NCBI GenBank assembly: GCA_014904985.1
Contig: MU129103.1
Location: 1 to 64,000 of the forward strand
Direction: 5' to 3'
Source: Hydnum rufescens UP504
Taxonomy: Eukaryota; Basidiomycota; Agaricomycetes; Cantharellales; Hydnaceae
DNA: 64,000 bases
A program made the position numbers and the translations under genes. Positions 34,472 to 52,580 of this stretch are shown here, piece after piece (positions within the stretch are counted from its first letter, which is position 1; every line of letters starts with the position of its first letter). The notes below the pieces were generated by a model. That model made no database searches. It was not told where the DNA came from and saw only the letters and a list, made by a program, of their open reading frames with translations.

Positions 34472-34584
34472 CTATAATAATAAATAGGTTAGTAAAAAAA
34501 AAAGAACACAAGCAATGCCAAAAGAGCAGCTAGTGCTGCTCTTTTGGCACCATGGTACACACTGTAATAAAAACAAACACACAC
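34472..34584 (-). other. Hairpin-intron unit 1
   Basis: 113 nt read on the minus strand: donor AG|GTGTGT, internal hairpin at 34516-34549 (15-bp stem TGCCAAAAGAGCAGC, 4-nt loop), branch-like CTAAC, acceptor TATAG. The preceding 'exon' ends in a hairpin made from CACACACCC and GGGTGTGTG. Confidence 0.65.
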
Positions 34585-34760
34585 CTAATATTGCCACACA
34601 CCCACTTCGGCGGGTGTGTGGCTCTGTATTTGAGGCCACCTCGTTGTATTGGTTGCGAATAGTCGAGAGTTAGGGTCTTGGGTGGCTGCGCACACGCCCA
34701 TATTTCACCCAGGCCTTGTCCACGGATTCTTTGGATGGGGGTTTCGCGGAGTGAGAAAAC

Positions 34761-34871
34761 CTAGAATAGCGCGTATGTTAGTTTAAAAAAAATAACAAAA
34801 GCAACGCCAAAAGAGCAGCCAGGGCTGCTCTTTTGGCATCGTTGTACACCCCATAATAAAAAAACACATAC
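34761..34871 (-). other. Hairpin-intron unit 2
   Basis: 111 nt: donor AG|GTATGT, stem GCCAAAAGAGCAGCC, branch CTAAC, acceptor TTCTAG. The upstream exon-like segment (34872-35042) is 171 nt. Confidence 0.68.
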
Positions 34872-35042
34872 CTAATATTGCCACACACCCACTTTGGTGG
34901 GTGTGTGGCACCATACTCGTTTTGTCGTTGTATGGGTTGTGGGCACTTGAGAGTCGGGGTCTTGGGTGGCTGCGCACTCCTGTATTTCGTGGTGCATTGT
35001 CTGTGCATTCTCTGGATCGGGTTTTGCGGAGGGAGAAAGAAC

Positions 35043-35154
35043 CTAGAATAATTAAATATGTTAGTAAAAAAAAAATACCATAAGCAACGCCAAAAGAGCA
35101 GCTGGTGCTGCTCTTTTGGTGTCATAATACACCCCATAATTAAAAAAAACTGAC
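35043..35154 (-). other. Hairpin-intron unit 3
   Basis: 112 nt: donor AG|GTCAGT, stem with CCAAAAGAGCAGC pairing to GCTGCTCTTTTGG, branch CTAAC, acceptor TTCTAG. The upstream exon-like segment (35155-35310) is 156 nt. Confidence 0.68.
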
Positions 35155-35310
35155 CTAATACACCCACCGAAGTGGGTGTGGCGCCGTACTTGATTCGTCA
35201 TTGTAGGGGTTGAGGATACGCGAAGGTTGAGGTCTTGGGTGGCTGCGCGCGCCCCCGTATTTCACCCTCGGTGCATAATTCGACTGGGGTTTCGCGGAGG
35301 GAGAAAGGAT

Positions 35311-35416
35311 CTAGAATAACAAATTTGTTAGTAAAAAAAAAACAACACAAGCAACGCCAAAGAGCAGCTGTTGCTGCTCTTTTGGCATCGCCGTACACCC
35401 CAGATAAAAAACTTAC
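35311..35416 (-). other. Hairpin-intron unit 4
   Basis: 106 nt: donor AG|GTAAGT, branch CTAAC, acceptor TTCTAG. One A is missing from one arm of the hairpin (GCCAAAGAGCAGC against GCTGCTCTTTTGGC), leaving a bulge. Confidence 0.65.
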
Positions 35417-35795
35417 CTAATAGTGCCACACACCCACTGCAGTGGGTGTGTGGCACCATCTCGTGCTTGCTTCAGCTTAGTAGAGTAGAATTGGACAAGA
35501 TTCAATGCCGGCGATTGCTGGTCTCAAAAAAGCACCCAAGTAGGGGCAGTACAAGGCTCATATAAATAGATAATAGATACCTACACATAGAATACTAAAT
35601 AATACATATTTAGTATTATTCTATGTGTGTCTATTATCTATTTATATGAGCCTTGTACTGCCCCTACTTGGGCACTTTTTTGAGGCCGGCAATCACCGGC
35701 GTTGAATCTCATCCGATTCTACTCTACTAAGGCCACCTGAAGCAAGCACGAGATGGTGCCACACACCCGCCGCAGCAGGTGTGTGGCACTATTAG

Positions 35796-35900
35796 GTAAG
35801 TTTTTTATCTGGGGTGTATGGCGATGCCAAAAGAGCAGCAACAGCTGCTCTTCTGGCGTTGCTTGTGTTATTTTTTTTACTAACAAATTCGTTATTCTAG
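35796..35900 (+). other. Hairpin-intron unit 5
   Basis: 105 nt, mirror of unit 4 across the palindrome: donor AG|GTAAGT, stem GCCAAAAGAGCAGC with a GCTGCTCTTCTGGC partner, branch CTAAC, acceptor TTCTAG. Confidence 0.68.
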
Positions 35901-36054
35901 ATCCTCTCTCCCTCTGTGAAACCCCAGCCAAATTATGCGCAGACAAGGCCCAGAGCGAAATGTGGGGGTGCATGCAGCCACCCAGCACTTCAACCCCAAC
36001 CCCTACAACAACGAATCAAGTACGGTGCCACACCCACTTCGGTGGGTGTATTAG

Positions 36055-36164
36055 GTCAGTTTTTTAAATTACGGGGTGTATTATGACACCAAAAGAGCAG
36101 CACCAGCTGCTCTTTTGGCGTTGCTTATGGTATTTTTTTTTACTAACATATTTAATTATTCTAG
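36055..36164 (+). other. Hairpin-intron unit 6
   Basis: 110 nt, mirror of unit 3: donor AG|GTCAGT, stem CCAAAAGAGCAGC, branch CTAAC, acceptor TTCTAG. The next exon-like segment (36165-36335) is 171 nt, the same as its mirror. Confidence 0.68.
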
Positions 36165-36335
36165 GTTCTTTCTCCCTCCGCAAAACCTGATCCGGAGAAT
36201 GCACAGACAATGCACCATGAAATACAGGAGTGCGCAGCCACCCAAGACCCCGACTCTCGAGTGCCCACAACCCATACGACAACAAAACAAGTACGGTGCC
36301 ACACACCCGCCAAAGCGGGTGTGTGGCAATATTAG

Positions 36336-36446
36336 GTATGTGTTTTTTTATTATGGGGTGTACAACGATGCCAAAAGAGCAGCCCTGGCTGCTCTTTTGG
36401 CGTTGCTTTTGTTATTTTTTTTAAACTAACATACGCACTATTCTAG
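36336..36446 (+). other. Hairpin-intron unit 7
   Basis: 111 nt: donor AG|GTATGT, stem GCCAAAAGAGCAGCC, branch CTAAC, acceptor TTCTAG. The next exon-like segment (36447-36611) is 165 nt. Confidence 0.68.
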
Positions 36447-36611
36447 GTTTTCTCACTCCGCGAAACCCCCATCCAAAGAATCCATGGACAAGGCCCGGGC
36501 GAAATACGGGCATGTGCGCAGCCACCCAGGACCTCAACCCTCGCGTATCCCCAACCCCTACAACGATGAATCAAGTACGGCGCCACACACCCACTTTGGT
36601 GGGTGTATTAG

Positions 36612-36722
36612 GTCCGTTTTTTTAAATTATGGGGTGTATTACAACGCCAAAAGAGCAGCACCAGCTGCTCTTTTGGCATTGCTTGTGTTATTTTTTTTTA
36701 CTAACATATTTAATTACTCTAG
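36612..36722 (+). other. Hairpin-intron unit 8
   Basis: 111 nt: donor AG|GTCCGT, GCCAAAAGAGCAGC stem, branch CTAAC, acceptor CTCTAG. It starts exactly 557 bp after unit 6, marking a two-unit duplication. Confidence 0.66.
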
Positions 36723-36892
36723 GTTCTTTCTCCCTCTGCGAAACCCAACCCGGAGAATGCACAGACAACGCACCACAAAACACAGGAGTGCGCAGCCACC
36801 CAAGACCCCGACTCTTGAGTACCCACAACCCATACGACGACGAAACAAGTATGGTGCCACCACCTGCCAAAGCGGGTGTGTGGCAATATTAG

Positions 36893-37001
36893 GTAGTGTT
36901 TTTTATTACGGTGTGTACAACAACACCAAAAGAGCAGCCCCGGCTGCTCTTTTGGCATTGCTTTTGTTATTTTTTTAAAACTAACATATGCACTATTCTA
37001 G
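36893..37001 (+). other. Hairpin-intron unit 9
   Basis: 109 nt: donor AG|GTAGTG (weakened by a one-base loss), CCAAAAGAGCAGCC stem, branch CTAAC, acceptor TTCTAG. It starts 557 bp after unit 7. Confidence 0.62.
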
Positions 37002-37199
37002 ATTTTCTCACTCCACAAAACCCCCGTCCAAAGAATCCATGGACAAGGCCCGGGCGAAATACAGGCATGCGCACAGCCACTCAAGACCCTAACTCTCAAC
37101 TATTCACAACCAATACAATGAGGCGACCTCAAATACGGAGCCACACACCCGCCGAAGCGGGTGTGTGGCAATCAGCCCCTCCGTGTTTCCGTGTTATCC

Positions 37200-37690
37200 A
37201 ATCAGTTCGAACTCCATGTATCCATTATCCCACAACTCTGTAAATAGTGACATCTGCCCTGAAGTCTTCAAGCCCATGTTCAACCCATCACAAGGTCTTT
37301 ACTGTGTATTAATCTGATGATCACCCGACTTTCGAAAGGATCAAGACATTCATGGTGCCCTGGAATCTTTGGATTATGGTTGAGGATGAAGATGTGGATG
37401 GTGAGATTAGTGGAAGATGAACACCCTGACTGTCCCAATGTATGAGCCCTTTGGCCCCTTCCCACCTAAGTACTTAGTGTCATTAGTTTTGAATCACTGG
37501 CTCTGTGGAGAGTCAGCAGCCAATCTCATTCAAGGACCTGATCCTTCCTAAGTAATTCCCTCTCACAACTCCTCTCCTCTCCCTCCAGCCACTCCCTCTT
37601 GCTACATTGCACAAGGAACTTGAGGGACCACACCCAAGCAAATTACAGTCATTCTCTGGTATCAATACTGTGATCATTGTCCCATGGGGT
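37200..37690. other. Spacer, no gene recognised
   Basis: No repeat or coding region is recognised between the palindrome and the second GC-rich element. Confidence 0.35.
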
Positions 37691-37835
37691 TCCCACGGGG
37701 TCCCCCCGGGTTTTTCAACCCCGTCTTGTATCCTGCGGCTTTTACACCCATGAGTCATGGGGGCGGGTTTTCAACCCCGCGGGGTGGGAGGTCCTAAATT
37801 CCCCCGCGGGGACCCCATGCAATAGCCTATTGTGA
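37690..37835. repeat. GC-rich hairpin element with GCGGGTTTT motifs, copy 2
   Basis: Related to 34030-34200 in inverted orientation. It contains GGGTTTTCAACCCCGCGG-type palindromes and ends 'accccatgcaatagcctattg'. Confidence 0.55.
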
Positions 37836-38145
37836 AGTAGAGGCCCTTGGTCATGTCTATATAGAGCCCTCATAGATAGTGAAGATTAATGTACTTGAAT
37901 TCTTATCCTTTAATGTGTATAGCCCTTGCATTGAACTCCATCTTGTTAAGTCTTTGAGGTTGAGGCCATTGACATTGGTTAATGTCGAATTTGATGTCAA
38001 AACCATCCATCTGAGGTCAAAATTCAGTTTTTGATCATCACTTGACATCAACCCCAATTTAAGCCTCTCAGGCCCAGACAACATGTCAAAATGGTACTCC
38101 TTTTGAGCTAAGGCTATATGGCTGACCAGCCTGCCTTCTTACTAG

Positions 38146-38229
38146 GTACAGCTGTGCAAAAAGGGCAGCAAAAGCTGCCCTTTTTGCACTCCTTTAACAT
38201 TTTTACTAACCATATTATTTCCATTCTAG
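38146..38229 (+). other. Hairpin-intron unit 10
   Basis: 84 nt: donor AG|GTACAG, stem TGCAAAAAGGGCAGC with a perfect partner, branch CTAAC, acceptor TTCTAG. The preceding exon side carries the small palindrome GGCTGACCAGCC shared with unit 26. Confidence 0.65.
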
Positions 38230-38365
38230 GTTTAAAGTTATCACCTCTGATCCAAAGATGGCCACCCGAAAACCAATCTGGGCCAAAACTCATGCAAGAC
38301 CCTGCATGTGATGACAGATAAAACAGCCCCACACACCTGCTGCAGTAGGTGTGTGGTTATATCTG

Positions 38366-38475
38366 GTGAGTCCCTCACTAAAGCATGTACAATGGGTGCC
38401 AAAGGAGCAGCATATGCTGCTCTTTTGGCACTGTCTCTTCCTTTTTTTTACTAATATTATTATTTGCTATTCTAG
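38366..38475 (+). other. Hairpin-intron unit 11
   Basis: 110 nt: donor TG|GTGAGT, stem TGCCAAAGGAGCAGC pairing with GCTGCTCTTTTGGCA, branch CTAAT, acceptor TTCTAG. A CACACACCTGCTGCAGTAGG hairpin precedes the donor. Confidence 0.66.
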
Positions 38476-38635
38476 GTCCCCCTCCCTGCATGAAACCCAC
38501 CCAACAAGGTCCAAAATGAAGCCCTGCATGAAAGAATGACACATAGCAGTCAATACTGGCAGCCCCCAAATGCACACAACAATGAATGAAACACAGCACC
38601 ACACACCCACTGTGGTGGCTGTGTGGTGATTTAAG

Positions 38636-38740
38636 GTAAGTATTTTCTCCACTAGGCCCTATCATGCAAGAAGAGCAGCAGCTGCCGCTGCTCTTCTTGC
38701 ACCTTTGTAAATTGTTGCTGACTTAGGTGTTCTATTCTAG
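38636..38740 (+). other. Hairpin-intron unit 12
   Basis: 105 nt: donor AG|GTAAGT, stem GCAAGAAGAGCAGC with partner GCTGCTCTTCTTGC, branch CTGAC, acceptor TTCTAG. The stem differs from units 1-9 but pairs perfectly. Confidence 0.68.
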
Positions 38741-40440
38741 GTCCTGACTGCCCACCCAAGCAAGAAGACCTGCAAACATTGTTGGAGGGAAAAATCCCTA
38801 CCACATAGAGTTCCATTTCAGCATCAAATTTTCCAATGAACGAATTAAAAATGTACCAATATGTTGTTCCAATAACAAGCCTTTCGTCTGTTCATGGATG
38901 AGCATGAATTCCATATGCCTGAAAAGATGTAAATGGAATGCTCATTTCCTTTGTACATGAGTCAACCTCCTGGGGTCTTCAACAGGCCATAGGGACTGTA
39001 TTCATTTATGCCCTATCATAAGCCATGATATGGTGGACCCAGCAATTCAACTTGCCCTTCTGTATATCGTCTTGAATTCTCCTTCAATCTGCTCATACGG
39101 ATCTTGTTGCCTTAAGGGCAACTCTAACGAATGGTGATTATGTAATACAATGGATTACACACCTGGGCCTTCATTCCTACTTGTGGATACGGTTACATAA
39201 TCAAATAGGGGCAAATGCGGCACTCTTAAGGAGTATTCATCGAATTTCTCTGTCAGTTTTGATCGGATCGGCTCGAAAAAGTAGCGTCCGGAAAGGTATG
39301 ATTCACACCTATCCAACAATACCGAGCACGAGTCGATCTGATTAAAATTGCATGTTCTAGAACTATTTTACTATGGAATCCATGCTCTTAAGGAGTATTC
39401 TCCACTTTTCGAAGTCAATTCGTATCCGATCGACTCATAAGTATAGCTCCTTGAAAGCTGTGATCAATACCTATCGAATGATACCTATTACGCATTTATC
39501 GGATCAGAACTGAGGCTTCTGGAATGATTTCACCTGCTCATTCATAATTAGAAGGTGTATTTTTCAAATTTCTCCATCAGTTTTGATCGGATCTGCATGA
39601 AACAACCACGGCTAGAAAGGTATTAAAAATGCCCATCCAGCGGTATGAAGGGCGTCACGAACAAAGAAGAACTTGGTGTTCTACATACAAATTTCCCCCT
39701 TGTCTCAGGAGAACATCATTCCCCCTTCCAATTTTCAAATATCAAATATTGTCTGGCAGCCTTATATCCAAAGGATAGGACGTTTAGGACGACTCATTCC
39801 ACCATTACTCAAGGGAATCTGTCCAAAAGGGAAGGAGAAATAGTCATTTTATGCTCTATCCTATCCCCAGATTTGTAAATTGAATATCTCTGTCAGTTTT
39901 GAAGATTTTGACTTGATTCCTTTTTCTACATATTTCCCCTATCCCCCTGCTTCCGTCGGATATTTGATCTCATAGCTGGGTTGTATATTAAGCGAATTGG
40001 GTTGAAAATTCCATTGTCTTCCCCCTCCCCAGTCTGAAGCACTGAAGTATTGCTGCTGGATTTCCAGGCGAATTCCATCTGAGGACATTGCTACTACTAC
40101 ACTTTGTCTAAGGCCACAAGACTAGGACCTTGGAGTGTGGTATTTGTGGCATAATTTCCCCTTTATTCATCTGCTTGAGCAACTACTGCTGACAGTGGAT
40201 TATCTTCTATCCTAAAGATCCTCCTACACTTGGACCTGAACATTCGGATTATTTTGGTGGCCCCCATTCTTTGTTCTCGATTCCATATCGTGGACTGTGG
40301 CAGAGATTCCCCCTTTTTCTCCTGCTTACAATGTCAAGGAGAACCTGTGCAACCATGGGATCATGCGAACAAACACCTGCACAACAGTGGGGGTGAAATT
40401 CCCCATGAACAATGCCCACACAAGTACCCAGAGGACAACA
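38741..40440. repeat. Spacer with diverged CTCTGTCAGTTTTGATCGGA blocks
   Basis: At 39230-39640 three diverged blocks recur, each with a TCTGTCAGTTTTGATCGGATC-like core, an 'aaaggtat' stretch and a 'taccgagcac' stretch. The same block type occurs inside the LTR-like elements at 43.1, 48.2 and 56.8 kb. The rest shows no gene. Confidence 0.5.
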
Positions 40441-40448
40441 AGGGACCA

Positions 40449-40490: not shown

Positions 40491-40836
40491 CACCTTGGAC
40501 AGCCATATGTGACCCCCTTCTTAGGTATCTATTCTGGGGCATGATTTGGTACCTAAGTAGGTACCAGACACTATTGGGGCCCCAGTCCACCACTTTGGTT
40601 GTGGTTTGGGCCCTCATTGGGGCCTTATTGGGCCAACTTCCAGTGCTAGATCACATATTGATTTATTTATTATTATTATATACATATTATGCCCTGCCAC
40701 CACCTGGCGGGGCCACACACCCCATTCTTACTGGTGTTCGGTCGGCGGGGTCGCGGGTTGCTTCATTTGTGGTTGCATGTTTTGATCATCCGGGATTTGC
40801 TTGGGGGTTTGTGCGGGTGGTGGGCTCAATAAGAAT

Positions 40837-40946
40837 CTACATTAATAAAGTACCATGTTAGTAAAGAGAAAAAGAAAAGAAAACCCATGAAAAAGGAGCA
40901 GCCTGTGCTGCTCCTTTTGCATGGTCAGACACAGATATACACTTAC
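40837..40946 (-). other. Hairpin-intron unit 13
   Basis: 110 nt: donor CAG|GTAAGT, stem TGCAAAAGGAGCAGC with one mismatch in its partner, branch CTAAC, acceptor TGTAG. Confidence 0.66.
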
Positions 40947-41104
40947 CTGAAAAATTACCACACCCGCTGCAGCAGGTGTGGCTCGTTATTTTTCGTCTGT
41001 GGCTTCGTATGCCCGTCCCCATGCATTTGTTCGCATGTTTTCATTGGTGTACTTGCGTTTGGACTTACGGCTGCATAGGTTCGCATGTTGGGGTGGGAGA
41101 TCTT

Positions 41105-41145
41105 ATTAACTTACCAGATATTACCACACCCGCCGCAGCGGGTGT
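41105..41145 (-). other. Truncated hairpin-intron unit (exon hairpin and donor only)
   Basis: CCACACCCGCTGCGGCGGGTGTGG precursor hairpin followed by CTG|GTAAGT on the minus strand, without an internal hairpin downstream. Confidence 0.5.
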
Positions 41146-41285
41146 GGTATGGTGCTTGACCTCGCGTAGGTTGCAGGGGTTGGGGTGCTGTGCGATCGGG
41201 CAGTGTTTGGCGGCTGTGCATCAAAACTTTGTGGGGACATCGTTTGTCTTCTCATCGGGTGGATTTTCATGTGGGTGGGGGCAAT

Positions 41286-41374
41286 CTACAATAAGGAGTA
41301 ATACGTTAGTTAAAAAAAAAACAAGAGGCAGTGCCAAAAGAGCAGCTTCTGCTGCTCTTTTGGCGCCGTGGTAC
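41286..41374 (-). other. Hairpin-intron unit 14
   Basis: 89 nt: donor CAG|GTACCA, stem GCCAAAAGAGCAGC, branch CTAAC, acceptor TGTAG. First unit of a trimer repeated by units 17-19. Confidence 0.64.
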
Positions 41375-41560
41375 CTGCCCACCTGGACATCTATGCGCTG
41401 TTCGTACGGGCATTCTTGCAGGTTTAAATACCGGTGGGTTTTGGTATCAGTGTTCTCGTGGGTTTTGCTATGGCCGTTCGCTTGGGTTTTCGTATGGCTG
41501 TTCGTTCGGGTTTTCATATGTGCGTTCATGCGGGTGTTTGCTCGGATCGGGGGTGATGAA

Positions 41561-41672
41561 CTACGATAATAAAAGAAATATCAGTTAGAAATCAATGGCA
41601 GCAGGAAAGAGCAGGGTGGCCTGCTCTTTTTGCGCCACTTTAGGTATTCTGACAAACAAAAACTTAGCTTAC
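41561..41672 (-). other. Hairpin-intron unit 15
   Basis: 112 nt: donor C|GTAAGC, a different stem (AAAGAGCAGG pairing with CCTGCTCTTT), branch CTGAT, acceptor CGTAG. No CACACCC hairpin precedes it. Confidence 0.6.
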
Positions 41673-41854
41673 GTTGTGGTATCTTCTTTTCATTCCACCA
41701 TTTGGGGTTTTTCGTTTGGGTGTCCTTTGGGGCACAGATTTAGTCAATCATCATGTTTGGGGGCCGGGCACTCAGGGCTTGGGCGGCTGTGCATCGAATT
41801 TCATGCTGGGGGTTGGTCCGTGTCCTCGTCGGGCGGGTTTTCACGTTGGGAGAC

Positions 41855-41965
41855 CTAGAATAACGAATAATGATATATTAGTAAAACAAACAAACCAGAG
41901 CGGCACCAAAAGAGCAGCTTCTGCTGCTCTTTTGGTGCCATTGTATAGTTTGGGATTAGACGCAC
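41855..41965 (-). other. Hairpin-intron unit 16
   Basis: 111 nt: donor AG|GTGCGT, stem GGCACCAAAAGAGCAGC with perfect partner, branch CTAAT, acceptor TTCTAG. Preceded by a CACACCTGCTGCGGTGGGTG-type hairpin. Confidence 0.68.
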
Positions 41966-42145
41966 CTAATATTACCACACACCCACCGCAGCAGGTGTGT
42001 GGTATCATGCTTGACCTCTCGTCGCATAGGTTGCGGGGGTTGGGGTGCTGGGTGCTCGGGCAGTGTTCGGCGGCTGTGCATCGAAACTTCGTGGGGGCGT
42101 CGTTTGTCTTCTCATCGGGCGGATTTTCATGTGGGTGGAGGCAAT

Positions 42146-42233
42146 CTACAATAAGGAATAATACATTAGTTAAAAAAAAACAAGAGGCAGCGCCAAAAGA
42201 GCAGCTTCTGCTGCTCTTTTGGCGCTGTGGTAC
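42146..42233 (-). other. Hairpin-intron unit 17
   Basis: 88 nt. Duplicate of unit 14, 860 bp away, with donor GTACCA, branch CTAAT and acceptor TGTAG. Confidence 0.64.
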
Positions 42234-42427
42234 CTGCCCACCTGGACATTTATGCGCCGTTCGTATGGGCGTTTTTGCAGGTTTAAATACCGGTGTTCTT
42301 GCGGGTTTCAGTATCAGCATTCTTGTGGGTTTCACTACGGCCATTCACTTAGGTTTTCGTATGGCTATTCATTCAGGTTTTCATATTGGCGTTCATGCAG
42401 GTGTTTGCTCGGGTCAGGGGTGATGAA

Positions 42428-42540
42428 CTATGATAATAAAAGGAATATCAGTTAAAAATCAATGTCAGCAGGAAAGAGCAGGGTGGCCTGCTCTTTTTGC
42501 CCCACTTAAGGTATTCTGACAAAAAAAAAACTTAGCTTAC
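42428..42540 (-). other. Hairpin-intron unit 18
   Basis: 113 nt. Duplicate of unit 15, 867 bp away, with donor GTAAGC, branch CTGAT and acceptor ATAG. The hairpin AAAGAGCAGG/CCTGCTCTTT is kept. Confidence 0.62.
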
Positions 42541-42711
42541 ATTGTGGTATCTTCTTTTCATTCCACTGTTTGGGTGTTCTGTCGGGTGCAGATTTAGTTG
42601 GTTGTCATGTTTGAGGGCCAGATACTCAGGGCTTGGGCAGCTGCGCATCAAATTTCATGCTGGCAGCTCATTGATGTCCTTGTCGGGCGGGTTTTCATGT
42701 AGGGAAGAGAC

Positions 42712-42820
42712 CTAGAATAACGAATAATAATACATTAGTAACAAAAAGAAAGCAGAGGGGTGCCAAAAGAGCAGCTTCTGCTGCTCTTTTGGCACCGTTG
42801 TATAATTTGGGATTAGACGT
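42712..42820 (-). other. Hairpin-intron unit 19, donor deleted
   Basis: Duplicate of unit 16, 857 bp away. The hairpin, branch CTAAT and acceptor TTCTAG remain, but the donor and half of the exon hairpin are deleted (gattagacgtgctgcagcagg), so it cannot be spliced as in unit 16. Confidence 0.6.
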
Positions 42821-42975
42821 GCTGCAGCAGGTATGTGGTGCTATATTTTATCCAGCGTGTATGCAGGTGTCGGGGGCTGGGCTCTCGGATCATGTAGTTG
42901 CTTGGCTGCGCACGTCCAGATTTCGTATTGGGCCGGGGCCATTTCTCGTTGTGTGAGGCTTCGTGCAGGGAGACA

Positions 42976-43078
42976 GGATAATATGTTAGTAAAGCAAAAA
43001 AAAAACAAAAAAAAAAAAGCAGTGCCAAAGAGCAGCTACTGCTGCTCCTTTGGCACCATATATGCTATAAAAACTTAC
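42976..43078 (-). other. Hairpin-intron unit 20, acceptor damaged
   Basis: Donor TT|GTAAGT, hairpin GCCAAAGGAGCAGC/GCTGCTCTTTGGC and branch CTAAC are present. The acceptor TTCTAG has been lost (reads ATTATCCTG). A long A-rich run lies between the hairpin and the branch. Confidence 0.55.
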
Positions 43079-43105
43079 AAGGTAACACCATACCTGCCGC
43101 AGCGG

Positions 43106-44666: not shown

Positions 44667-44757
44667 GCGGGTGTGGTCCTGTATTCGATGTGTTGTCATG
44701 TAGGTTCGGGGGTTGGGCTCTTATATGGTTGTGCGCATTTGTATTTCGTCTAGGTAC

Positions 44758-44868
44758 CTAGAATAATAATACGTTAGTAAGGGAAAAAAAACCGAAGGCA
44801 ATGCCAAAAGAGCAGCTGGTGCTGCTCTTTTGGCATTGTGGTACACCCCGTAATGAAAAAAAACTCAC
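44758..44868 (-). other. Hairpin-intron unit 21
   Basis: 111 nt: donor AG|GTGAGT, stem TGCCAAAAGAGCAGC, branch CTAAC, acceptor TTCTAG. A CACACCCACTTCGGCGGGTG hairpin precedes it. Confidence 0.68.
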
Positions 44869-45061
44869 CTAATATTGCCACACACCCGCCGAAGTGGGTG
44901 TGTGGCACTGTGTTTGATTCATCGCAGAAGTTGCAGGTGCCTAGGGACAGGGATTTCGGGTGGCTGCACAGATCCATATGTCGCCTGTTTTCTTGTCGGG
45001 CGGGGTTTCCTACAGGCAACGGGCGCATGATCTGATCGGTGAAACAGGGGGAGGAGTCCTA

Positions 45062-45110
45062 AGAGCCCACGCACACAACATTTAATGTGCATGGGCTCAC
45101 TCATTCGCCC
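45062..45110. repeat. Isolated hairpin in exon-like sequence
   Basis: GAGCCCACGCACA pairs with TGTGCATGGGCTC (one mismatch, short AT-rich loop). A degenerate relative lies at 49882-49922, showing that this exon-like segment was also duplicated. Confidence 0.5.
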
Positions 45111-45253
45111 GTTAATCGCAATTGTGTGCCGGTACTTCATTAGTACCGGCTGTCGGGGCTTTGGCCACTCGCAGAGTTCGAGGTCCGAGACGACGATGGG
45201 TAATCGTTGTCGTCATTTGACATGCGGGAGAGGGGTTGGGCCAGACCAACAGG

Positions 45254-45349
45254 CTGTAATCCAAGAGGCTGATTAGTAAAACATTCAAGTATGCGAAAGG
45301 GCAGCTCCAAGCTGCCCTTTCGCATAACAGTAACAGATAAAATACTTAC
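45254..45349 (-). other. Hairpin-intron unit 22 (subfamily II)
   Basis: 96 nt: donor AAG|GTAAGT, stem TATGCGAAAGGGCAGC with perfect partner, branch CTAAT, acceptor ACAG. The exon ends in a CACCCCAGCATTGCTGGGGTG hairpin core, written here as arms CACCCCAGCA and TGCTGGGGTG. Confidence 0.68.
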
Positions 45350-45579
45350 CTTATCACCACACCCCAGCAATGCTGGGGTGTGGCATTGCTGGGGTGTGGT
45401 GTGCTCCTTAGTGGACATCGAAGGTTTGTTCTCCACCTTCCTGGTTTGGGTCGCGGTATTCTCAGGTGGTATGCGGTCACAAGATCCGCAGCGATTCATA
45501 ATCGCGATGGGGGAGCCACGGTACCACTGTGGGTGCATCATCGCCATTGGTTACGATGGAGGGTGCGCGGGGATAGGGT

Positions 45580-45669
45580 CTAGAATGAAGATAATTTGTA
45601 TTAAGAAATTGTGGGAACACAGAAAGGGCAGCTTAAAGCTTCCCTTTGTGCAAGTAAGAAAATAAGTAC
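45580..45669 (-). other. Hairpin-intron unit 23 (subfamily II)
   Basis: 90 nt: donor CAG|GTACTT, stem AAAGGGAAGCTT/AAGCTGCCCTTT with one mismatch, branch CTTAAT, acceptor TTCTAG. Confidence 0.62.
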
Positions 45670-45855
45670 CTGTTCACCACACCCCAGTGATCCTGGGGTG
45701 TGGTGTCCTGTGTGTGGTGGCGTCCTCGGTCACACTCTTTGTGTTGTTCGGTTATGTGCCAGTGATAATAGTCGAAATTGCCGACGACGACAACAACAAA
45801 TGTCGCCGTCGTTGTTTGGGGTGCGAGAGGGGTCGGGGGATGATAGCAAGTGTCC

Positions 45856-45952
45856 CTATAATGAAAATAGAGAATTATTAGTAAGAGCTTAAAGCAGCGC
45901 AAAGGAGGCAGGCCACAAGCTAGCCCCCTCATGCAGGAGCAGTAATACTTAC
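45856..45952 (-). other. Hairpin-intron unit 24 (subfamily II)
   Basis: 97 nt: donor AAG|GTAAGT, branch CTAAT, acceptor ATAG. The internal hairpin is degraded (GGAGGCAGG/CTAGCCCCC), while the exon hairpin CACCCCAGCATCACTGGGGTG is kept. Confidence 0.6.
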
Positions 45953-46124
45953 CTTGTCACCACACCCCAGTGATGCTGGGGTGTGGTGTCCGGTTTATGT
46001 CGTCCTTGGTCCTGTTCTTCACGTTGGTCGGTTGTGCGGGTGACAGAACCCACGATTTGTCGTAATGGCGACGACAGGACCATCGCCACCATTCAAGGTG
46101 GGTCGCGGGGGGTAGCGATAGTAT

Positions 46125-46224
46125 CTACAATGAAGATAATTTGGATTGTTAGTAAAACCATTAAGCAACACAAAAAGGGCAGCTTAAAGCTGCCCTTGTT
46201 GCACGAATAAATAATGGGACTTAT
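46125..46224 (-). other. Hairpin-intron unit 25 (subfamily II), donor mutated
   Basis: 100 nt. The donor reads AAG|ATAAGT where sister units have GTAAGT, so GT became AT. The stem AAGGGCAGCTT/AAGCTGCCCTT, branch CTAAC and acceptor TGTAG remain. Confidence 0.6.
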
Positions 46225-46249
46225 CTTATCACCACCCCCCAGCATTGCT

Positions 46250-46930
46250 GGAGGTGGTGCCTCGTTTATACCATCTGTAGTCTCACGTTTTGCCTTGTTC
46301 GGGTGTATGGGCTACAGAACCCATTATCAGAGCTGAACCGTCTGTATCAGCTTATCGTGCATCGGAGGGTATCACAGTAGGGGATTGGACCAACGGCCAG
46401 GAGCTCCTTAACCTCCAGCCAATAAAGAATGGGCATTGACGTAGCATCCTGCATGTAGCCACACTTCTGTCAGCTCCCTAAGCAGTTCACCGCAGTCATT
46501 TTCGTACCTGGAAAGACTCCACCTGGTTGTATGGACGCAGAGACCGCTGTCCAATTATGGAGACAAGGAATCGCGCTTAAGCATGTCTTTGAACAGGAGG
46601 GGTAATGTGGTATTGCGCCCCTTCCTTCGATTCAAGCCTCCAGCCTGCGAGCTGCCAAAGGAACCGCCAATGCTCAGAATATCTCTGCAACCCAAATCCA
46701 TAAGGCTCGCTCCTGTGGCGATCAATTCTCCTTCAATTCCAATGGCTGGCCAAGTGAGCCATTCTCAGGCACTCGTGGTGGGGGGCCATGATACATTGTT
46801 ACCAGCTTCATCGCAACTAGGATGCATGGTCCTGCCACTAAGGGGAGTCAAACGAGACTTCCAGCCCCGAGTTTGGGTTGGGGAGCAAAGGAGTGAGGAG
46901 AAACGCCCCTCAAACTTTTGCGTGATCGCG
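46250..46930. other. Spacer before the small assembly gap
   Basis: A plus-strand frame runs from 46583 into the gap, but its translation is not recognised and the part after the gap is a minisatellite. No gene is called. Confidence 0.35.
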
Positions 46931-46933
46931 GCC

Positions 46934-46958
46934 NNNNNNNNNNNNNNNNNNNNNNNNN
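46934..46958. other. Assembly gap (25 N)
   Basis: A run of 25 N of nominal length, directly before a GGTTTGGG-rich minisatellite that probably caused the break. Confidence 0.95.
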
Positions 46959-46974
46959 GCAGGGGGTTGGTCAG

Positions 46975-47290
46975 TGGGTCTTTGTTTGGATTTGGGTTGC
47001 AGGGTCTTCATTTGGTGGGTTTGGGCTCATGGGGGTTGGCTCGGTGGGTCTTTGTTCGGATTTGGGGTCATGGAGTCTTTGTTTGGTGGGTTTGGGCTCA
47101 CAGGGTTTGGCTCAGCAGGTCTTTGTTCAGATTTGGGGTCACAGGGTCTTCGTTTGGCAGGTTTGGGCTTGCAGGGTTTGGCTTGGTGGGTCTTCATTCG
47201 GATTTGGGGTCACGGGGTCTTCATTTGGTGGGTTTGGGGTTGTGGGGTTTGGCTCAGTGGGTCTTCATTCGGCAGTCTTGGGATTGGGGG
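46975..47290. repeat. 71-bp minisatellite
   Basis: Just over four units with a 71-bp step (anchors 'tttggtgggtttggg' at 47011, 47082, 47153 and 47224). Because 71 is not a multiple of three, all three plus-strand frames translate to the same peptide pattern in rotation. It occupies the exon-like segment next to hairpin-intron unit 26. Confidence 0.8.
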
Positions 47291-47314
47291 TTCATGCAGG
47301 TTCAAGTCTGAGAT

Positions 47315-47419
47315 CTAGAAAAAATAAATAATATATTAGTTAAAGAATATATGCATCACAAGAAGAGCAGCCATAGGCTGCTCTTCTGGCACAAAAGTAT
47401 CTAAGGATATGATACTTAC
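47315..47419 (-). other. Hairpin-intron unit 26
   Basis: 105 nt: donor TGG|GTAAGT, stem AGAAGAGCAGCC/GGCTGCTCTTCT, branch CTAAT, acceptor TTCTAG. The exon side ends in GGCTGACCAGCC, as in unit 10. Confidence 0.66.
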
Positions 47420-48130
47420 CCAGGCTGGTCAGCCATATTTGATACCTATGATAGGTATCAAATTTGGGGCACTTTTTGGTACCTAAGTAGGTCCAATTGT
47501 GATGGGGTGCCATAGGGGTGCCAATTGATAATTCAATATCAGAGAATCAGCCCAAGTGGGGCCCAAATTGGGTATATGGGCCCCAATGTGGTGCCATGGG
47601 GCCCCAATGTGGCTCCAAAATGAACCCCTTCATAGTTTCCACACCACTGAGGCACTAATCTGCATTTATGTTTAATTATGTAATACCCAAATGTGGAAAA
47701 TGCAGAAAATAAGTACATCCACAGTGTCCCCAAGCCATCCAGCCCAATCCAGCAGCCGATCTTGTAGTATACATACATCAAATTGCATATGTTACCTTGG
47801 ATATTTGTGCTTGAAAGGCTTACCATACAGTAACCATAAGTTATGGGATGATATATTATATGGGTGCATGGTATATATTCCTACTGCCAAGCTGCTTTAT
47901 AATCACCATCAGCAATGGCGGGATTTCCTTATTTGGAAATCACATGTGCATATGAACTCGCACTTCATTCTGCATTCTAGCCTGCTACAGGGCTTTTTTT
48001 TGGATTCTAATTGGGTGGTTCAATACCCTGGATTTATCTCTATTTTTATGGTACAAAGAAGAGACTACAGAGGAAAGAATACAAAATTGAATTTACAAAA
48101 AAAAAATATATATATATATATTACACATGC
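47420..48130. other. Spacer, no gene recognised
   Basis: It contains 'ggtacctaagtagg' sequence shared with 40540-40570 and repeated GGGGCCCCAA-type motifs at 47550-47620. It ends in a TA-dinucleotide run (48107-48121). Confidence 0.4.
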
Positions 48131-48150
48131 CCGGTGCCTACAGGCACCAG

Positions 48151-49836
48151 TATAGAAGAAGGGTTAGGAGCTCCGATGACTGTCAAATCAAAATCTGGTT
48201 CAGCCAGTGTGTAGATAGGAGACTGTGTTTCTGTTTATTCAAATGGGTTGGTTCGCTTCGATGGTTGATCACTCTCTGCAAGATATGTATGTGTTTATTG
48301 GAGAATGGAATGTGATATGGACTAGCAATAGTCAATGATATATCGTAGATGCTTATAAGAAGGCTTATACGTCGTATGGAATGCTTATAGAAAGGCTTAT
48401 ATGTGGAGGATGCTTATAGGAAGGCTTATACGTCTGGGATGCTTGTGGAAAGGCTTATACGTGTTCGTGTTGTGTTTGTTCGTTTACTTATATTTGTGTG
48501 TCCTTGTTTACGTCCTCTGAGTCAAAATGCGGATATCTGTGGGCTATAGAATGGTCAGCGCTTGGTTAGTTTGGTTAGTATGCTTCAATCTTCTTCCCTG
48601 ACTCGTATTTTTGTTATGCTTACCTTTTCCCTGGATGTCCAGCAACTCTAACCTTAGGTTCTGCAACTATCCTTGGCTTCAGTATTTTGCGTAGATGGCT
48701 TCCAGTAGCTTGGTCTCAACAACCTTGAAGATGACTTAGCTCCAGATGGCTTTAGATAGACAGTTCTTTAGATATTAAGCAGAATGGTAGACAGTAGTTG
48801 ACAGTGGTTCATTTCCAGAGTGAGGAGATGGGGGGGAACAAGAAAATCTGCTAGCTTATATACCTATCTGAAGGTGGCTGTGCATGGAGCAAGAACAAAA
48901 GAGTAATAAAGCTATGAGATCATAGTGATGTCATGGGGGAGTCATAGTGGAGTAGAACAAAAGAGTAATAAAGAAATGATGTCATAATGCGGTCATAGCT
49001 GAGTCATCCACAGAGTGTGATGTCATAGTGAAGTCATAGTGATGTCATTCATAAAGAGAACAAAAGGATTCATAAAGGGAATGATGTCACTAATTTGCTG
49101 AGCTTGTGGAGTGGTTGGAGCATGATGTCACTGATCTTGTGATGTGTTTTGGGGCTCATGGGAAGTGAAATTAAAGGACATCTCCGGGTTCTGGAGATTA
49201 ATCTGAGCATAGTCCAGTGGTTAAGGTGTTTTTGTTACTGGTTAATAAAAGGAACAAGTGCATGGTGTGGGATTCGATGCAGAGACAGCAGTTTGTATCC
49301 GTAATAGGCGTGCTTGGTATCATTCAATGCGGATTTTTAACAGCTTTCTGGGCGCGGTGGTTCCGAGCAGATCCGGTGTAAACTGACGGAGAAATTCGTT
49401 TTTTACTGATGGGTGTTAATTCTGATAGTAATATCATTCTGTAGAGTTCAGTTTTAATCTGTTCTTCGCGTGCTCAGTACCGTTGGATGCGGATTTTTTA
49501 TATCTTTCTAGGCGCGGTTGTTCCGAGAGTATTGAATGCGAACTGACGGAGGTATTCATTTTTTACTGGAAATCCTGGATTTTAATAATAAAATTGGCCT
49601 GGAGAGTGCAGTTTTGGTCCGTTCAACTTGTGTTTGGTACCGTTCGAAAGGTGTGAATCGTAGCTTTCTAAGCGTTATATGGGTGTACCTCTCCGATCAA
49701 AACTGACGGAGTTATAAAACGAATTTCGTTTCTGCGCGTAGCCATAATTAATCTCATAATCGGTCATGTGATCGTCCAATGGCTGGAAGTTGTGTAATTT
49801 CGCTTTTTCTGATACTGGATGTTTTTATCTTCCACA
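48151..49836 (-). mobile_element. Solo LTR-like element, copy 2
   Basis: 1,686 bp with the same ends as copy 1 (TGTGGAAGATAAAAACATCC to CTTCTTCTATA on the minus strand). Flanking 4-mers are CCAG (48147-48150) and CCGG (49837-49840), a target duplication with one mismatch. It carries a TATA-like stretch near 48850 and a duplicated 'aggcttatacg' segment at 48340-48470 not present in copy 1. The insertion split a hairpin whose arms read TGCCCGGTGCC and GGCACC+GGGCA. Confidence 0.65.
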
Positions 49837-50086
49837 CCGGGCACACGACTTGATAGGCGAGAATGTGGGAAAGATCCTAGGGGCCGATGCACACAAATTT
49901 TTGAGTGTATGGGTGCCCTGGCCCCTCCGTCGTTCTTGATTTTGTACGGGTGGTCCTGTTGTACCAGCCATGGCTGTGGCGGGTCCTAGGAGTGCAAATC
50001 GTCGATGGCAAGGGCGATCCTGTCATTATGGGATCGCCCTTATCATCAGTCGGGGGAGGGACGAGGCTGGGGAATAACATTAATCC

Positions 50087-50195
50087 CTATGATGGAAATA
50101 ATTCATGTTGTTAGCATGAAATTTAAGCTGTGCGAACAGGGCAGCTTAAAGCTGCCCTATTCATGCTAAAAGGGAGGCAAGTTTGGGGAACTTAG
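50087..50195 (-). other. Hairpin-intron unit 27 (subfamily II), donor mutated
   Basis: Stem AGGGCAGCTTAAAGCTGCCCT and acceptor ATAG are present. The donor position reads ATG|CTAAGT, with GT replaced by CT. Confidence 0.55.
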
Positions 50196-50393
50196 CATAT
50201 TACTACACCCAGCAACACCGGGGTGTGGTGGCTTGCTTATTGTGCGGGTAGTTTGCGTCTTCGGCTTCTTTGGTCATGCGGGTCATGCAGGTCATGCGGA
50301 GGTGCAGGGCAGTCACTTGTTCCCAATGACAATGGTGGGATTCCCAGTGTGGTCATTGGTTGAGGTGGGGGGGGCAGGCAAGATTGATTGTCC

Positions 50394-50500
50394 CTAAAAT
50401 GAAAATGATCAAACGGTTAGTACATGATTAAAGCAGCACAAAAAAGGGCTGCCTTAGGCTGCCCTTGGTGCAAAATGAGACAAAGCAGGCATATACTTAC
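50394..50500 (-). other. Hairpin-intron unit 28 (subfamily II)
   Basis: 107 nt: donor AAG|GTAAGT, stem AAGGGCAGCC/GGCAGCCCTT, branch CTAAC, acceptor TTAG. Confidence 0.64.
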
Positions 50501-50676
50501 CTTATTACCATACCCCAGCTTTGCTGTGGTTTCCAGTCTCAGGTGATTTATTGCCGGTTTCTCTAGCGGAGTGGGGTCATATGACCCTGCAACCATTTGC
50601 GATAACGGCCGGATCATCAGGTGGCGGTGTGAACGTGTTCATTTGAAGGGCATGAGGATGGTGGGCAGCAGTGATT

Positions 50677-50757
50677 CTGTAATGAGAGAATTGAAACCAT
50701 TAGTAAAAAATAAAAGTCATAGAAAGAAGGCAGCTTAAAAGCTGCCCTCTACGCTAC
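50677..50757 (-). other. Hairpin-intron unit 29 (subfamily II)
   Basis: 81 nt: donor AAG|GTAGCG, stem GGGCAGCTTTTAAGCTGCC with short loop, branch CTAAT, acceptor ACAG. Shortest unit of the set. Confidence 0.6.
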
Positions 50758-50934
50758 CTTATTGTTGCACCCCAGCAAGGCTAGGGTGTGGCAGTTTATT
50801 TACACCATGGGGTGGGTATCTTCAGTCGAGGTTGCGCGAAACCATAGGATCCGTGATAGTCCATGAAAAGATGAAGGCATTGCTGCCATGATCCTCATGC
50901 GACTCCAGTGAGTCGATGGTCAAAGCAAAGGTGC

Positions 50935-51016
50935 CTATACGGAAGAAATTTGAAAGGTCAGTTAAGAGTGATAAAAGGAGCGAGTTTAAACTCGCTCCTG
51001 ACACAAAGATACTTAC
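50935..51016 (-). other. Hairpin-intron unit 30 (subfamily II)
   Basis: 82 nt: donor GAG|GTAAGT, branch CTGAC, acceptor ATAG. The internal hairpin is a perfect 24-nt palindrome centred on TTTAAA with arms AGGAGCGAG and CTCGCTCCT, so the stem sequence is unrelated to other units but the structure is kept. Confidence 0.66.
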
Positions 51017-51029
51017 CTCATCATGGCAC

Positions 51030-51500
51030 TGGGGTGTAGATCGCGTGCTCCTTTGCGCGGATTACGGAATCGAAATTGGCGACAGACAAAGCTGAAACTC
51101 AACAGCGGCACATGCTGGGTTCAAAAAACCCAAAGGGGAGCATGCCACAGGGTACTGTGACAGGGTCTATATGCAGACCAGTGCTAGGTGAATGATATTT
51201 TATTATTATTTTTCTGTGAAGATTCAGGGGGGAAGCAAGAATGAGCCAGATACCAAATAAGGCAATATATGGCAGGGGTTGGGGCAGTCTGTATGGATCA
51301 GAGTCATCCCAAGATTAAATATTATTATCCCATATATATACTACAAGATCCAGGCATGAAAATGGATGTCCAAACAATCCCAAAATTTCCCAATCCTCAT
51401 TTTTTATTTAGGCATATACAGTGAGTCTGACAGTCTGGAATTGTAGTTCTCTCAACTGTTTGGTAGTTGAATAGCATACTATACTTCATCTGATAGTTTC
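51030..51500. other. Spacer, no gene recognised
   Basis: AT-rich, without a recognisable gene or repeat unit. Confidence 0.35.
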
Positions 51501-51506
51501 CCCTCT

Positions 51507-51941
51507 CCACAATGGCCCAGATATGTCCAGAGATGGCCAAGACTTGAATTTCCTTATTTGGGTAAGTGTATTTCCTCCTTTGTGCAGTCATAGCACAGTA
51601 TTAGAGCCTAGGAAGCTGGGATTAGAATGTGATCTAGTCTGGCCACAAAATATAATTTTTTTCAGAATTTTTAAGACAAATAATATGTCACGGGTTCCGC
51701 ATATCCAGAGTGGCTCTGATTCTCAGAATCAGAGCCACTCTGGATATGCGGAACCCATGACATATTATTTGTCTTAAAAATTCTGAAAAAAATTATATTT
51801 TGTGGCCAGACTAGATCACATTCTAATCCCAGCTTCCTAGGCTCTAATACTGTGCTATGACTGCACAAAGGAGGAAATACACTTACCCAAATAAGGAAAT
51901 TCAAGTCTTGGCCATCTCTGGACATATCTGGGCCATTGTGG
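51507..51941. repeat. Foldback element, near-perfect 435-bp palindrome
   Basis: Arms of about 217 bp (starting CCACAATGGCCC, ending GGGCCATTGTGG) meet at 'tctgattctcagaatcaga' near 51724 with almost no loop. Only a few mismatches are visible (for example cacgggttccg against cggaacccatg). Both strands therefore encode nearly the same 84-residue open frame, which is a by-product of the symmetry. Each arm contains GGGTAAGTG, a splice-donor-like sequence. No flanking duplication is evident. Confidence 0.88.
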
Positions 51942-52129
51942 CATTGGAAAAATTCTCAGATAAAGTCTGGTGTGTTATTTAAGTAGGACACAGTTGAAAG
52001 AACCAAGCACTCACAAGGCCAGACTGTTGGGCTTAGTGCATATACTGTAACTTGGAAATAGGGGTTTGGGAAATTTTAAAATTGTTTTGATATCCATGTT
52101 AACATATCTACCTTGTAGATATATATGTG

Positions 52130-52440
52130 TTATCCCAATATTTTATTTTTGGGGCACCCTGATCCATACAGGCGACCCAAGCCCCTGTTCAGTGTCATAA
52201 TGCATTGCCATATTCGGATTTTGCTCATTCTTGCCTTTTTCTTCCATATTATTATCAAAATAATTATCAAATATAACATAACACACATTTCCTTTCGTAT
52301 ATACACTTCCACAATGCTCTGTGGTGTCTTTCTGCCTGGGGTTCGGCGCTTTTTTGAATCCAGAGCCTGCTGGCATTGAGTCTCGGCTTCACCCGACAGC
52401 CATATCGGGGATACCACGAGCAAGCGCCCAAACGAGGTGC
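52130..52440. other. Spacer, no gene recognised
   Basis: AT-rich sequence with overlapping short frames on both strands and no recognised motif. It leads into unit 31. Confidence 0.35.
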
Positions 52441-52480
52441 ATCACACCACACCCCAGCCGTGCTGGGGTGTGGTGATGAG

Positions 52481-52580
52481 GTAAGTAATTTTTTTGTTTA
52501 TGATTTCTTCCAGAGGGAGCGGCTTTAAGCTGCTCCTCCGGGTGGGTTTAATTTTGTACTCATAACTTTTCTCACCGTAG
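52481..52580 (+). other. Hairpin-intron unit 31 (subfamily II, plus strand)
   Basis: 100 nt: exon hairpin with arms CACCACACCCCAGC and GCTGGGGTGTGGTG, then GAG|GTAAGT, internal stem GAGGGAGCGGCTT/AAGCTGCTCCTC with one mismatch, branch-like CTCATAAC, acceptor GTAG. It is the last recognisable unit and points opposite to units 13-30. Confidence 0.66.

What the first reader, a model, noticed from the sequence alone, without database searches (positions are those of the whole stretch)
34472..52580. About 31 dispersed units that each look like a complete spliceosomal intron built around a hairpin
Each unit is 81-113 nt with a GT donor (mostly GTAAGT, GTATGT, GTCAGT or GTGNGT), a central perfect or near-perfect hairpin, a CTAAC/CTAAT/CTGAC branch-like site and a TAG/CAG acceptor, always in the same order and orientation relative to the hairpin. 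They lie in non-genic DNA as short arrays. Introner-like elements with stable secondary structure are known from fungi and algae, but those are found inside genes. An intergenic array of dozens of introns joined by short exon-like segments is something I do not recognise. It could be a source locus for introners, a many-exon non-coding transcript, or a mobile element family that uses splicing to stay harmless.
Basis: partly seen in the sequence, partly recalled or inferred. Interest (0 to 1): 0.92.

Follow-up and report, generated by a model that had tools for sequence, protein, structure and literature searches.

The report
Transposons built from spliced noncoding exons
In the genome of a hedgehog mushroom, a jumping DNA element carries two back-to-back rows of what look like complete introns separated by noncoding exons, and the splice signals are preserved as if splicing matters, although no protein appears to be encoded.

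Summary
In detail: 31 intron-like units lie at 34,472-52,580, 30 of them matched by a covariance model that finds none elsewhere in the window at E<=0.05. The genome is Hydnum rufescens UP504. The units form the interior of multicopy elements. The first block is a TIR DNA transposon, 34,044-37,829, with a 9-bp target duplication and 15 full-length matches to its joined flanks elsewhere in the genome, i.e. empty sites. Its centre is a palindrome with outward-facing TATA boxes (promoter function inferred); two exon-intron arrays diverge from it. The hairpin core occurs at 3,319 places genome-wide. Splice signals are conserved far above background: donor GT 93% vs 72%, acceptor AG 95.5% vs 57%, branch A 98.5% vs 77%. 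The exons show no coding constraint, although deposited gene models call some arrays hypothetical proteins. Hairpins covary, but without the G-U over A-C bias expected of RNA-level selection. Best reading: nonautonomous transposons carrying divergent, spliced, noncoding multi-exon units, possibly intron-rich leaders that keep outward transcription active or harmless. Splicing itself is not directly shown.

The parts
34044..37829 (.). Element 1: nonautonomous TIR DNA transposon; TIRs TAGGCTATTGCATGGGG at 34044-34060 and (reverse complement) 37813-37829
   Evidence: TIR pair; right 650 bp shared by L016, L013, L029 at 96-97.5% and left 397 bp by L016 and L029 at 95%; 15 full-length matches to the joined flanks elsewhere
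34035..34043 (.). left target site duplication TTGTGAAGT
   Evidence: a single copy in the joined query that finds full-length matches
37830..37838 (.). right target site duplication TTGTGAAGT
35417..35795 (.). central palindrome of element 1 (arms about 86-90% alike) with outward TATAAATA boxes at 35561 (+) and 35639 (-); inferred divergent promoter and the two first exons
   Evidence: promoter function is inferred
34472..35416 (-). left arm of element 1: introns 35311-35416, 35043-35154, 34761-34871, 34472-34584 (read on - strand) with exons of 156-176 nt between
   Evidence: deposited model BS47DRAFT_1367198 uses all four acceptors and none of these donors
35796..37001 (+). right arm of element 1: introns 35796-35900, 36055-36164, 36336-36446, 36612-36722, 36893-37001 (the last with a weak donor GTAGTG)
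   Evidence: deposited model BS47DRAFT_1367199 uses four of these acceptors and two of these donors
38125..38743 (+). third short group: units matched at 38125-38232, 38362-38478, 38632-38743
40834..51016 (-). left side of element 2: 18 units, matched near 50935 (rule only), 50674, 50391, 50084, 47312, 46122, 45853, 45577, 45251, 44755, 42963, 42709, 42425, 42143, 41852, 41558, 41283, 40834, interrupted by other repeats; may be more than one element
51235..52234 (.). central palindrome of element 2 (1,027-column inverted repeat alignment, 81%)
52481..52580 (+). single unit to the right of the element 2 centre
   Evidence: (match 52477-52583)

Best explanation
These are nonautonomous DNA transposons of Hydnum rufescens whose interior is a pair of divergent, multi-exon, noncoding transcription units. 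SHOWN: element 1 is a TIR element that inserted with a 9-bp duplication; three other array-bearing copies with the same TIR have 7-8 bp. Its arms are repeats of one unit: an exon, mostly about 140-190 nt, that often ends in a short palindrome, then an intron of about 108 nt holding a second palindrome. The splice signals have been kept while the rest of the unit diverged, and the exons show no sign of coding. INFERRED: transcription starts in the central palindrome and runs outward on both sides; the ordinary spliceosome removes the introns, with the hairpin cutting the working length to about 73 nt; arrays grow by duplication of the exon-intron unit; a transposase supplied in trans moves the whole element. 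Most likely role of splicing (weakest step, about 0.35): an intron-rich leader that keeps the outward transcript efficiently processed, so that the promoter stays active and read-through into or from neighbours is tolerated.
For: TIRs and TSDs. Of 63 matches to the joined flanks (40 of 140 candidates scored) 15 span the whole 360-nt query at 89-98%, five of them exactly 360 nt at 98%. Recurrence: 51 exact TIR ends; element-1-type centre motif 32 sites; related centre motif of the larger family 386 sites, and of the 100 listed 60 form 30 outward-facing -/+ pairs 579-599 bp apart. Strand order - then + in 13 of 17 array loci, the other four having one strand only; L010 and L012 have further - units beyond. 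Splice-signal constraint over 647 homologous pairs (110 queries, 176 subject sites, at most 8 pairs per query): donor GT 0.934 vs 0.718 background, acceptor AG 0.955 vs 0.572, branch A 0.985 vs 0.772, donor +3/+4 free at 0.57/0.62. Exons: 590 of 730 indels are not multiples of 3, no 3-base periodicity. Intron median 108 nt, 73 nt without the hairpin, n=147; three of seven introns of a deposited neighbouring gene model are 68-72 nt, the other four 55-269 nt with weak donors.
Against: No RNA evidence of transcription or splicing was available. The 647 pairs are not independent, being copies of a few masters. Of 6 array-bearing TIR pairs examined, 2 (L030; L031+L032) show no TSD. The ends of the larger family (L006, L008, L010, L012, L028) were not settled, so its membership in a TIR transposon is inferred. 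No transposase was found inside the TIR pairs: 10 ORFs scanned, one sub-threshold hit to a non-transposase family (L029 and L033 have no ORF of 170 aa). Not every ORF of every array locus was scanned, and a Tc1-type transposase lies 1.2 kb beyond the array of L006. Deposited models agree with my acceptors in 24 of 33 junctions but with my donors in 7 of 33. Exons are more open than shuffled sequence on both strands, and in one set 33 of 71 exon lengths are multiples of 3.
Confidence: 0.68

Rival explanations
1. Introner source locus: the single hairpin intron is the mobile unit and the arrays are its nursery.
For: Stereotyped intron with internal hairpin in thousands of copies. One related hairpin intron precedes a malate-dehydrogenase-like fragment with 18 near-full copies, and in 15 further loci homology to that stretch starts at the donor and ends about 70 nt into the exon.
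Against: TIRs and duplications bound the array element, not the intron, in element 1. The apparent singletons L011 and L015 sit in array remnants. A unit carries its exon with it. The covariance model finds none in 80 kb of loci without listed hits, but seven of those eight loci were placed where one search listed no hit, so they are not a random sample, and conserved genes were not searched systematically.
Confidence: 0.1
2. DNA-level repeat: the palindromes are dimer binding sites (e.g. transposase subterminal sites) or products of palindrome-correcting replication, and splicing is a by-product.
For: Hairpin B: G-U 42 vs A-C 46 mismatches in 133 units; in eight consensus sequences 3 vs 5. 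Hairpin A 7 vs 13 in 68 units. In 3 of 8 larger centres (L005, L006, L007) the two palindrome arms are more alike than either is to any other element, e.g. L007 94.6% against at most 73.3%.
Against: It does not explain why asymmetric GT, branch and AG bases are kept far above background. The mismatch counts may only reflect recent C-to-T decay. In 5 of 8 larger centres and in all 5 element-1-type centres compared, another element is closer than the own second arm.
Confidence: 0.3
3. Ordinary protein-coding genes: a lineage-specific multi-exon gene family.
For: 43 deposited H. rufescens hypothetical proteins match the spliced array of the window; two map to its two arms. Exons are more open than shuffles.
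Against: Indels break frame, no codon periodicity, antisense about as open as sense; by eye the same exon type is read in different frames in different models (P0121, P0123, P0125). The listing gives no Pfam domain for any of the 43, though one (P0122) is named DDE-1 domain-containing by a source; all 43 are from this one species.
Confidence: 0.05
4. Small-RNA or dsRNA source: palindromic centres and arms make silencing RNA, like a bidirectional piRNA-type cluster with introns.
For: Inferred outward transcription from one centre and long inverted repeats.
Against: Outward transcripts of the two arms would be alike, not complementary; no small-RNA data could be seen.
Confidence: 0.12

Closest known systems
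Introners / introner-like elements (Gozashti et al. 2022, PMC9860276: passages seen; van der Burgt et al. 2012: seen only as a reference there)
   Same: Multicopy, stereotyped spliceosomal introns, many linked to nonautonomous DNA transposons, some with TIRs and 3-9 bp duplications
   Different: Introners sit inside genes and the intron is the mobile unit; here dozens lie in arrays with their own noncoding exons inside a larger element. The passages seen name Pezizomycotina as the introner-bearing fungi; Hydnum is a basidiomycete
Foldback-type elements and long-TIR MULEs (recalled; one search gave a listing of 8 papers only)
   Same: Long inverted repeats made of tandem subrepeats; for MULEs also duplications of about 8-11 bp
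   Different: I recall no such element with conserved introns and exons in the arms; the inverted repeat here surrounds a palindromic centre
Intronic stem-loops that shorten distances in fungal introns (recalled)
   Same: Hairpin between donor and branch site leaves a shorter working length
   Different: Those are single gene introns; the G-U tolerance expected of RNA selection is not seen here
Spliced noncoding precursors with bidirectional promoters, e.g. mammalian pachytene piRNA clusters (PMC7782496, listing and abstract start; divergent promoters recalled)
   Same: Intron-containing noncoding transcripts
   Different: Here they are carried by a transposon and built from one repeated unit

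Membership tests
TIR DNA transposon | terminal inverted repeats at both ends | tested here: met
   element 1 and copies L016, L029, L033
TIR DNA transposon | target site duplication | tested here: met
   window 9 bp, L016 8, L033 8, L029 7; L030 and L031+L032 none (4 of 6); array-free small elements with the same TIR 5 of 5 with 8 bp (flanks compared by eye)
TIR DNA transposon | empty sites | tested here: met
   15 full-length matches to the joined flanks of element 1; their letters were not read
TIR DNA transposon | transposase source (superfamily) | tested here: inconclusive
   in the genome KDZ 154 matches (584 candidates, 150 scored), hAT dimer domain 90, MULE 13; none found inside a TIR pair; the KDZ loci L025-L027 share only an internal TIR-like relic
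U2-type spliceosomal intron | GT donor, branch site, AG acceptor in order at fungal spacing | tested here: met
   (motifs partly required by the finder)
U2-type spliceosomal intron | constraint on those signals | tested here: met
U2-type spliceosomal intron | actual removal from RNA | not testable with these tools
   no RNA-seq; deposited gene models only
Introner | copies as introns inside protein-coding genes at many sites | tested here: inconclusive
   none seen in what was followed; one hairpin intron beside an MDH-like fragment; conserved genes not searched systematically
Introner | the intron itself is the mobile unit | tested here: not met
   mobile boundaries enclose the whole array in element 1
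Protein-coding gene family | conserved reading frame | tested here: not met

The most novel reading that the evidence does not exclude
A class of DNA transposons whose payload is a spliced, multi-exon noncoding RNA made from a palindromic bidirectional promoter, with splicing under selection because the transcript or its splicing serves the element (silencing escape, transposase recruitment or safe insertion).
Probability: 0.35. Interest if true: 0.88.

Novelty: new variant of a known kind. Interest (0 to 1): 0.73.

Why it matters
If the splicing is real, here are thousands of introns with no coding sequence to protect, which makes it testable what selection acts on splicing itself in a selfish element: expression, escape from silencing, or safe insertion. 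The similar copies and the empty sites make it possible to date units and to follow how intron arrays grow and decay in one genome. It also warns that gene models in this genome count some transposon arrays as multi-exon genes.

Tried and rejected
Coding potential of spliced exons: rejected. Rfam: no match at gathering thresholds; tRNA: none. KDZ as the partner transposase: three KDZ copies carry a TIR-like relic and one hairpin intron but no array, so not shown. MULE and hAT: present, no link made. An 11.4-kb TIR pair (L031+L032) as an autonomous copy: no transposase among five ORFs scanned and no TSD. Pfam on 40 ORFs: 10 of the window, 10 of loci L011, L015, L017, L019, L020, L021, L024, 10 inside TIR pairs, 10 beside arrays; 31 had no family, the other nine host-type, retroelement or Tc1-type domains or (one, inside a TIR pair) a sub-threshold hit to a non-transposase family. 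RNA-level constraint on hairpins by G-U versus A-C: no bias; I judge the test weak because recent C-to-T decay gives the same result. Concerted evolution of palindrome arms: seen in 3 of 8 larger centres, in 0 of 5 element-1-type centres. A 324-aa open spliced frame of the window right arm was kept only as a search query.
Full report
IDENTITY OF THE GENOME. The window is contig C195 of a 63.2-Mb, 539-contig assembly. Deposited Hydnum rufescens UP504 proteins come from contigs whose lengths equal C2 (756,901), C3 (665,372) and C104 (208,737), and BS47DRAFT_1304981 maps to the window with 478 of 480 residues in exact pieces. The organism is therefore Hydnum rufescens, an ectomycorrhizal basidiomycete of the Cantharellales. 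Of its genome paper (PMC7550596) I saw passages only (12 of 14 places found); they mention the species and transposon proliferation, not these arrays. Library searches for 'Hydnum rufescens' with 'intron' and for palindrome, bidirectional promoter, noncoding exon and transposon together gave 0 papers each; the library holds only part of the literature.

THE OBSERVATION. Reading the sequence shows the repeated order donor, hairpin B, T-rich stretch, CTAAC or CTAAT, TAG. Across 133 units in the window and fetched loci the commonest donors are GTAAGT (35), GTGAGT (35) and GTATGT (21), the branch-like site is CTAAC (75) or CTAAT (40), and the acceptor is TAG (119) or CAG (14); these motifs were partly required by the finder. 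A second palindrome (hairpin A) at the exon end was detected in 68 of 133, in 66 of them 2-16 nt before the donor. Controls of the rule-based finder: window 28 against 8 in the reversed sequence, 12 array loci 92 against 11, 8 loci without listed hits 0 against 4.

IT IS A TRANSPOSON. The right 650 bp of the first block are shared by L016, L013 and L029 at 96-97.5%, the left 397 bp by L016 and L029 at 95%. Its ends are an inverted repeat TAGGCTATTGCATGGGG and it is flanked by TTGTGAAGT on both sides. A query of the two flanks joined with one copy of that 9-mer matches 15 other places over its whole length, five of them exactly 360 nt at 98%: the element jumped into one member of an older repeat family and the others are empty sites. 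I did not read the letters of those sites. Other pairs of the same TIR carry 8-bp duplications (L016, L033, five small array-free elements), L029 has 7, and L030 and the 11.4-kb pair have none. 51 exact TIR ends exist in the genome.

DIVERGENT ARMS AND CENTRES. In 13 of 17 array loci the units read - on the left and + on the right; the other four show one strand only, and L010 and L012 have further - units beyond the right arm. Between the arms lies a palindromic region: 376-387 bp in element-1 copies, 695-1,078 bp in others. A motif beginning CTTGGG sits on both sides of the centre; for the larger family there are 386 sites, and of the 100 listed 60 form 30 outward-facing pairs 579-599 bp apart, the other 40 being unpaired or differently spaced. 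Element 1 has TATAAATA facing right at 35,561 and its mirror at 35,639. Promoter function is inferred. The second block of the window has an inverted repeat at 51,235-52,234 with 18 units to its left on - and one to its right on +. L008 and L010 carry the same ordered series of exon starts in both arms at 91% identity, so larger elements also multiply as whole arrays, although their ends were not settled.

SPLICE SIGNALS ARE KEPT. Each unit with 60-nt flanks was aligned by BLAST to homologous places regardless of whether these still have the motifs; 647 pairs at 68-93% identity were used, at most eight per query. Donor GT is kept in 604 of 647, acceptor AG in 618, branch A in 637, while background GT and AG dinucleotides are kept in 72% and 57% and background A in 77%. 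Donor positions +3 and +4 are kept in only 57% and 62%, +5 and +6 in 90% and 95%. This is the pattern of a functional U2 intron. The pairs are related, so no significance is attached. Units have a median length of 108 nt, or 73 nt without the hairpin (n=147). Of seven introns in the deposited model of a neighbouring gene three are 68-72 nt; the other four (55-269 nt) have weak donors.

NO PROTEIN. Of 730 indels between 212 homologous exon pairs 590 are not multiples of three, and substitutions show no 3-base rhythm. The antisense strand is about as open as the sense strand; both are more open than shuffles, and exon lengths lean mildly to multiples of three (30 of 75, 33 of 71). 43 deposited H. 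rufescens hypothetical proteins match the spliced array. Two lie on the two arms of element 1 and use eight of the eight predicted acceptors, but two of the eight donors; over five array models mapped it is 24 of 33 acceptors and 7 of 33 donors. By eye the same exon type is read in different frames in different models. I take these models for prediction artefacts that nevertheless noticed the introns.

HAIRPINS. 13 of 17 modelled pairs show double-sided changes. Mismatches are G-U 42 against A-C 46 in hairpin B, 7 against 13 in hairpin A, and 3 against 5 in eight consensus sequences. Selection on RNA pairing should favour G-U. The result favours a DNA-level cause or simply recent decay; I cannot separate these.

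A LINK TO GENES. Three KDZ loci carry one related hairpin intron each at the same place, ahead of a malate-dehydrogenase-like fragment, with an open frame entering it from the exon after the intron (the enzyme was recognised by eye and borne out by the Ldh_1_N match at that place). The Ldh_1_N family has 20 matches in the genome, 18 of them next to a match of the intron query. That query finds 18 near-full copies, plus 15 other loci in which homology starts at the donor and ends about 70 nt into the exon. Only three of the 18 were read. Units can thus become leader introns of captured gene pieces, in the cases read beside a KDZ transposase domain.

READING. The structural claim (a transposon with divergent, splice-competent noncoding arrays) is strong in anatomy for element 1 and indirect for splicing. 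The role of splicing is open. I favour an intron-rich leader that keeps outward transcription productive or harmless. That introns can be barriers to nuclear RNAi in worms was seen only in a title and abstract start; intron-mediated enhancement and spliceosome-triggered RNAi in Cryptococcus are recalled. Introners are the nearest known kind; passages of PMC9860276 place fungal introners in Pezizomycotina, highly biased toward genes.

Noticed in passing
window 43106-44666 and 48151-49836: A ~1.6-kb repeat (TATAGAAGAAGG...TATCTTCCACA) sits beside or inside short palindromes of the arrays here and in L009 and L028; in L022 it is flanked by ACGT on both sides, in the first window copy by GCGG, a possible 4-bp duplication.
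   Followed up: partly
L025:1994-2080 (-), L026:7932-8017, L027:7983-8066: KDZ-bearing repeats hold a malate-dehydrogenase-like fragment with a hairpin leader intron; 18 near-full copies of the stretch genome-wide.
   Followed up: partly
L010:626-1985, L006:2158-3517, L007:4760-6117: 1.36-kb TG...CA repeat, an LTR candidate; in L007 it starts within 20 nt of an array acceptor and a retroelement reading frame (protease, reverse transcriptase) follows.
   Followed up: partly
L006:7543-8529 (-): Tc1-type transposase frame (HTH_Tnp_Tc3_2, DDE_3) 1.2 kb beyond the end of an array.
   Followed up: no
G000, whole genome: KDZ transposase domain is very abundant: 154 matches, 584 candidates of which 150 were scored.
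   Followed up: no
L034 (C221:82801-88100): Three ~375-bp MITEs with the element-1 TIR and 8-bp duplications lie among reading frames that look like a retroelement by eye.
   Followed up: no
window 33264-33864: A 300-bp tandem repeat flanks element 1 and belongs to the repeat family that supplied the empty sites.
   Followed up: no
window 60001-62000: GC of 24% and long overlapping open frames on both strands; the window has 873 N, the last at 61,496, so this is probably an effect of masking rather than of real sequence.
   Followed up: partly
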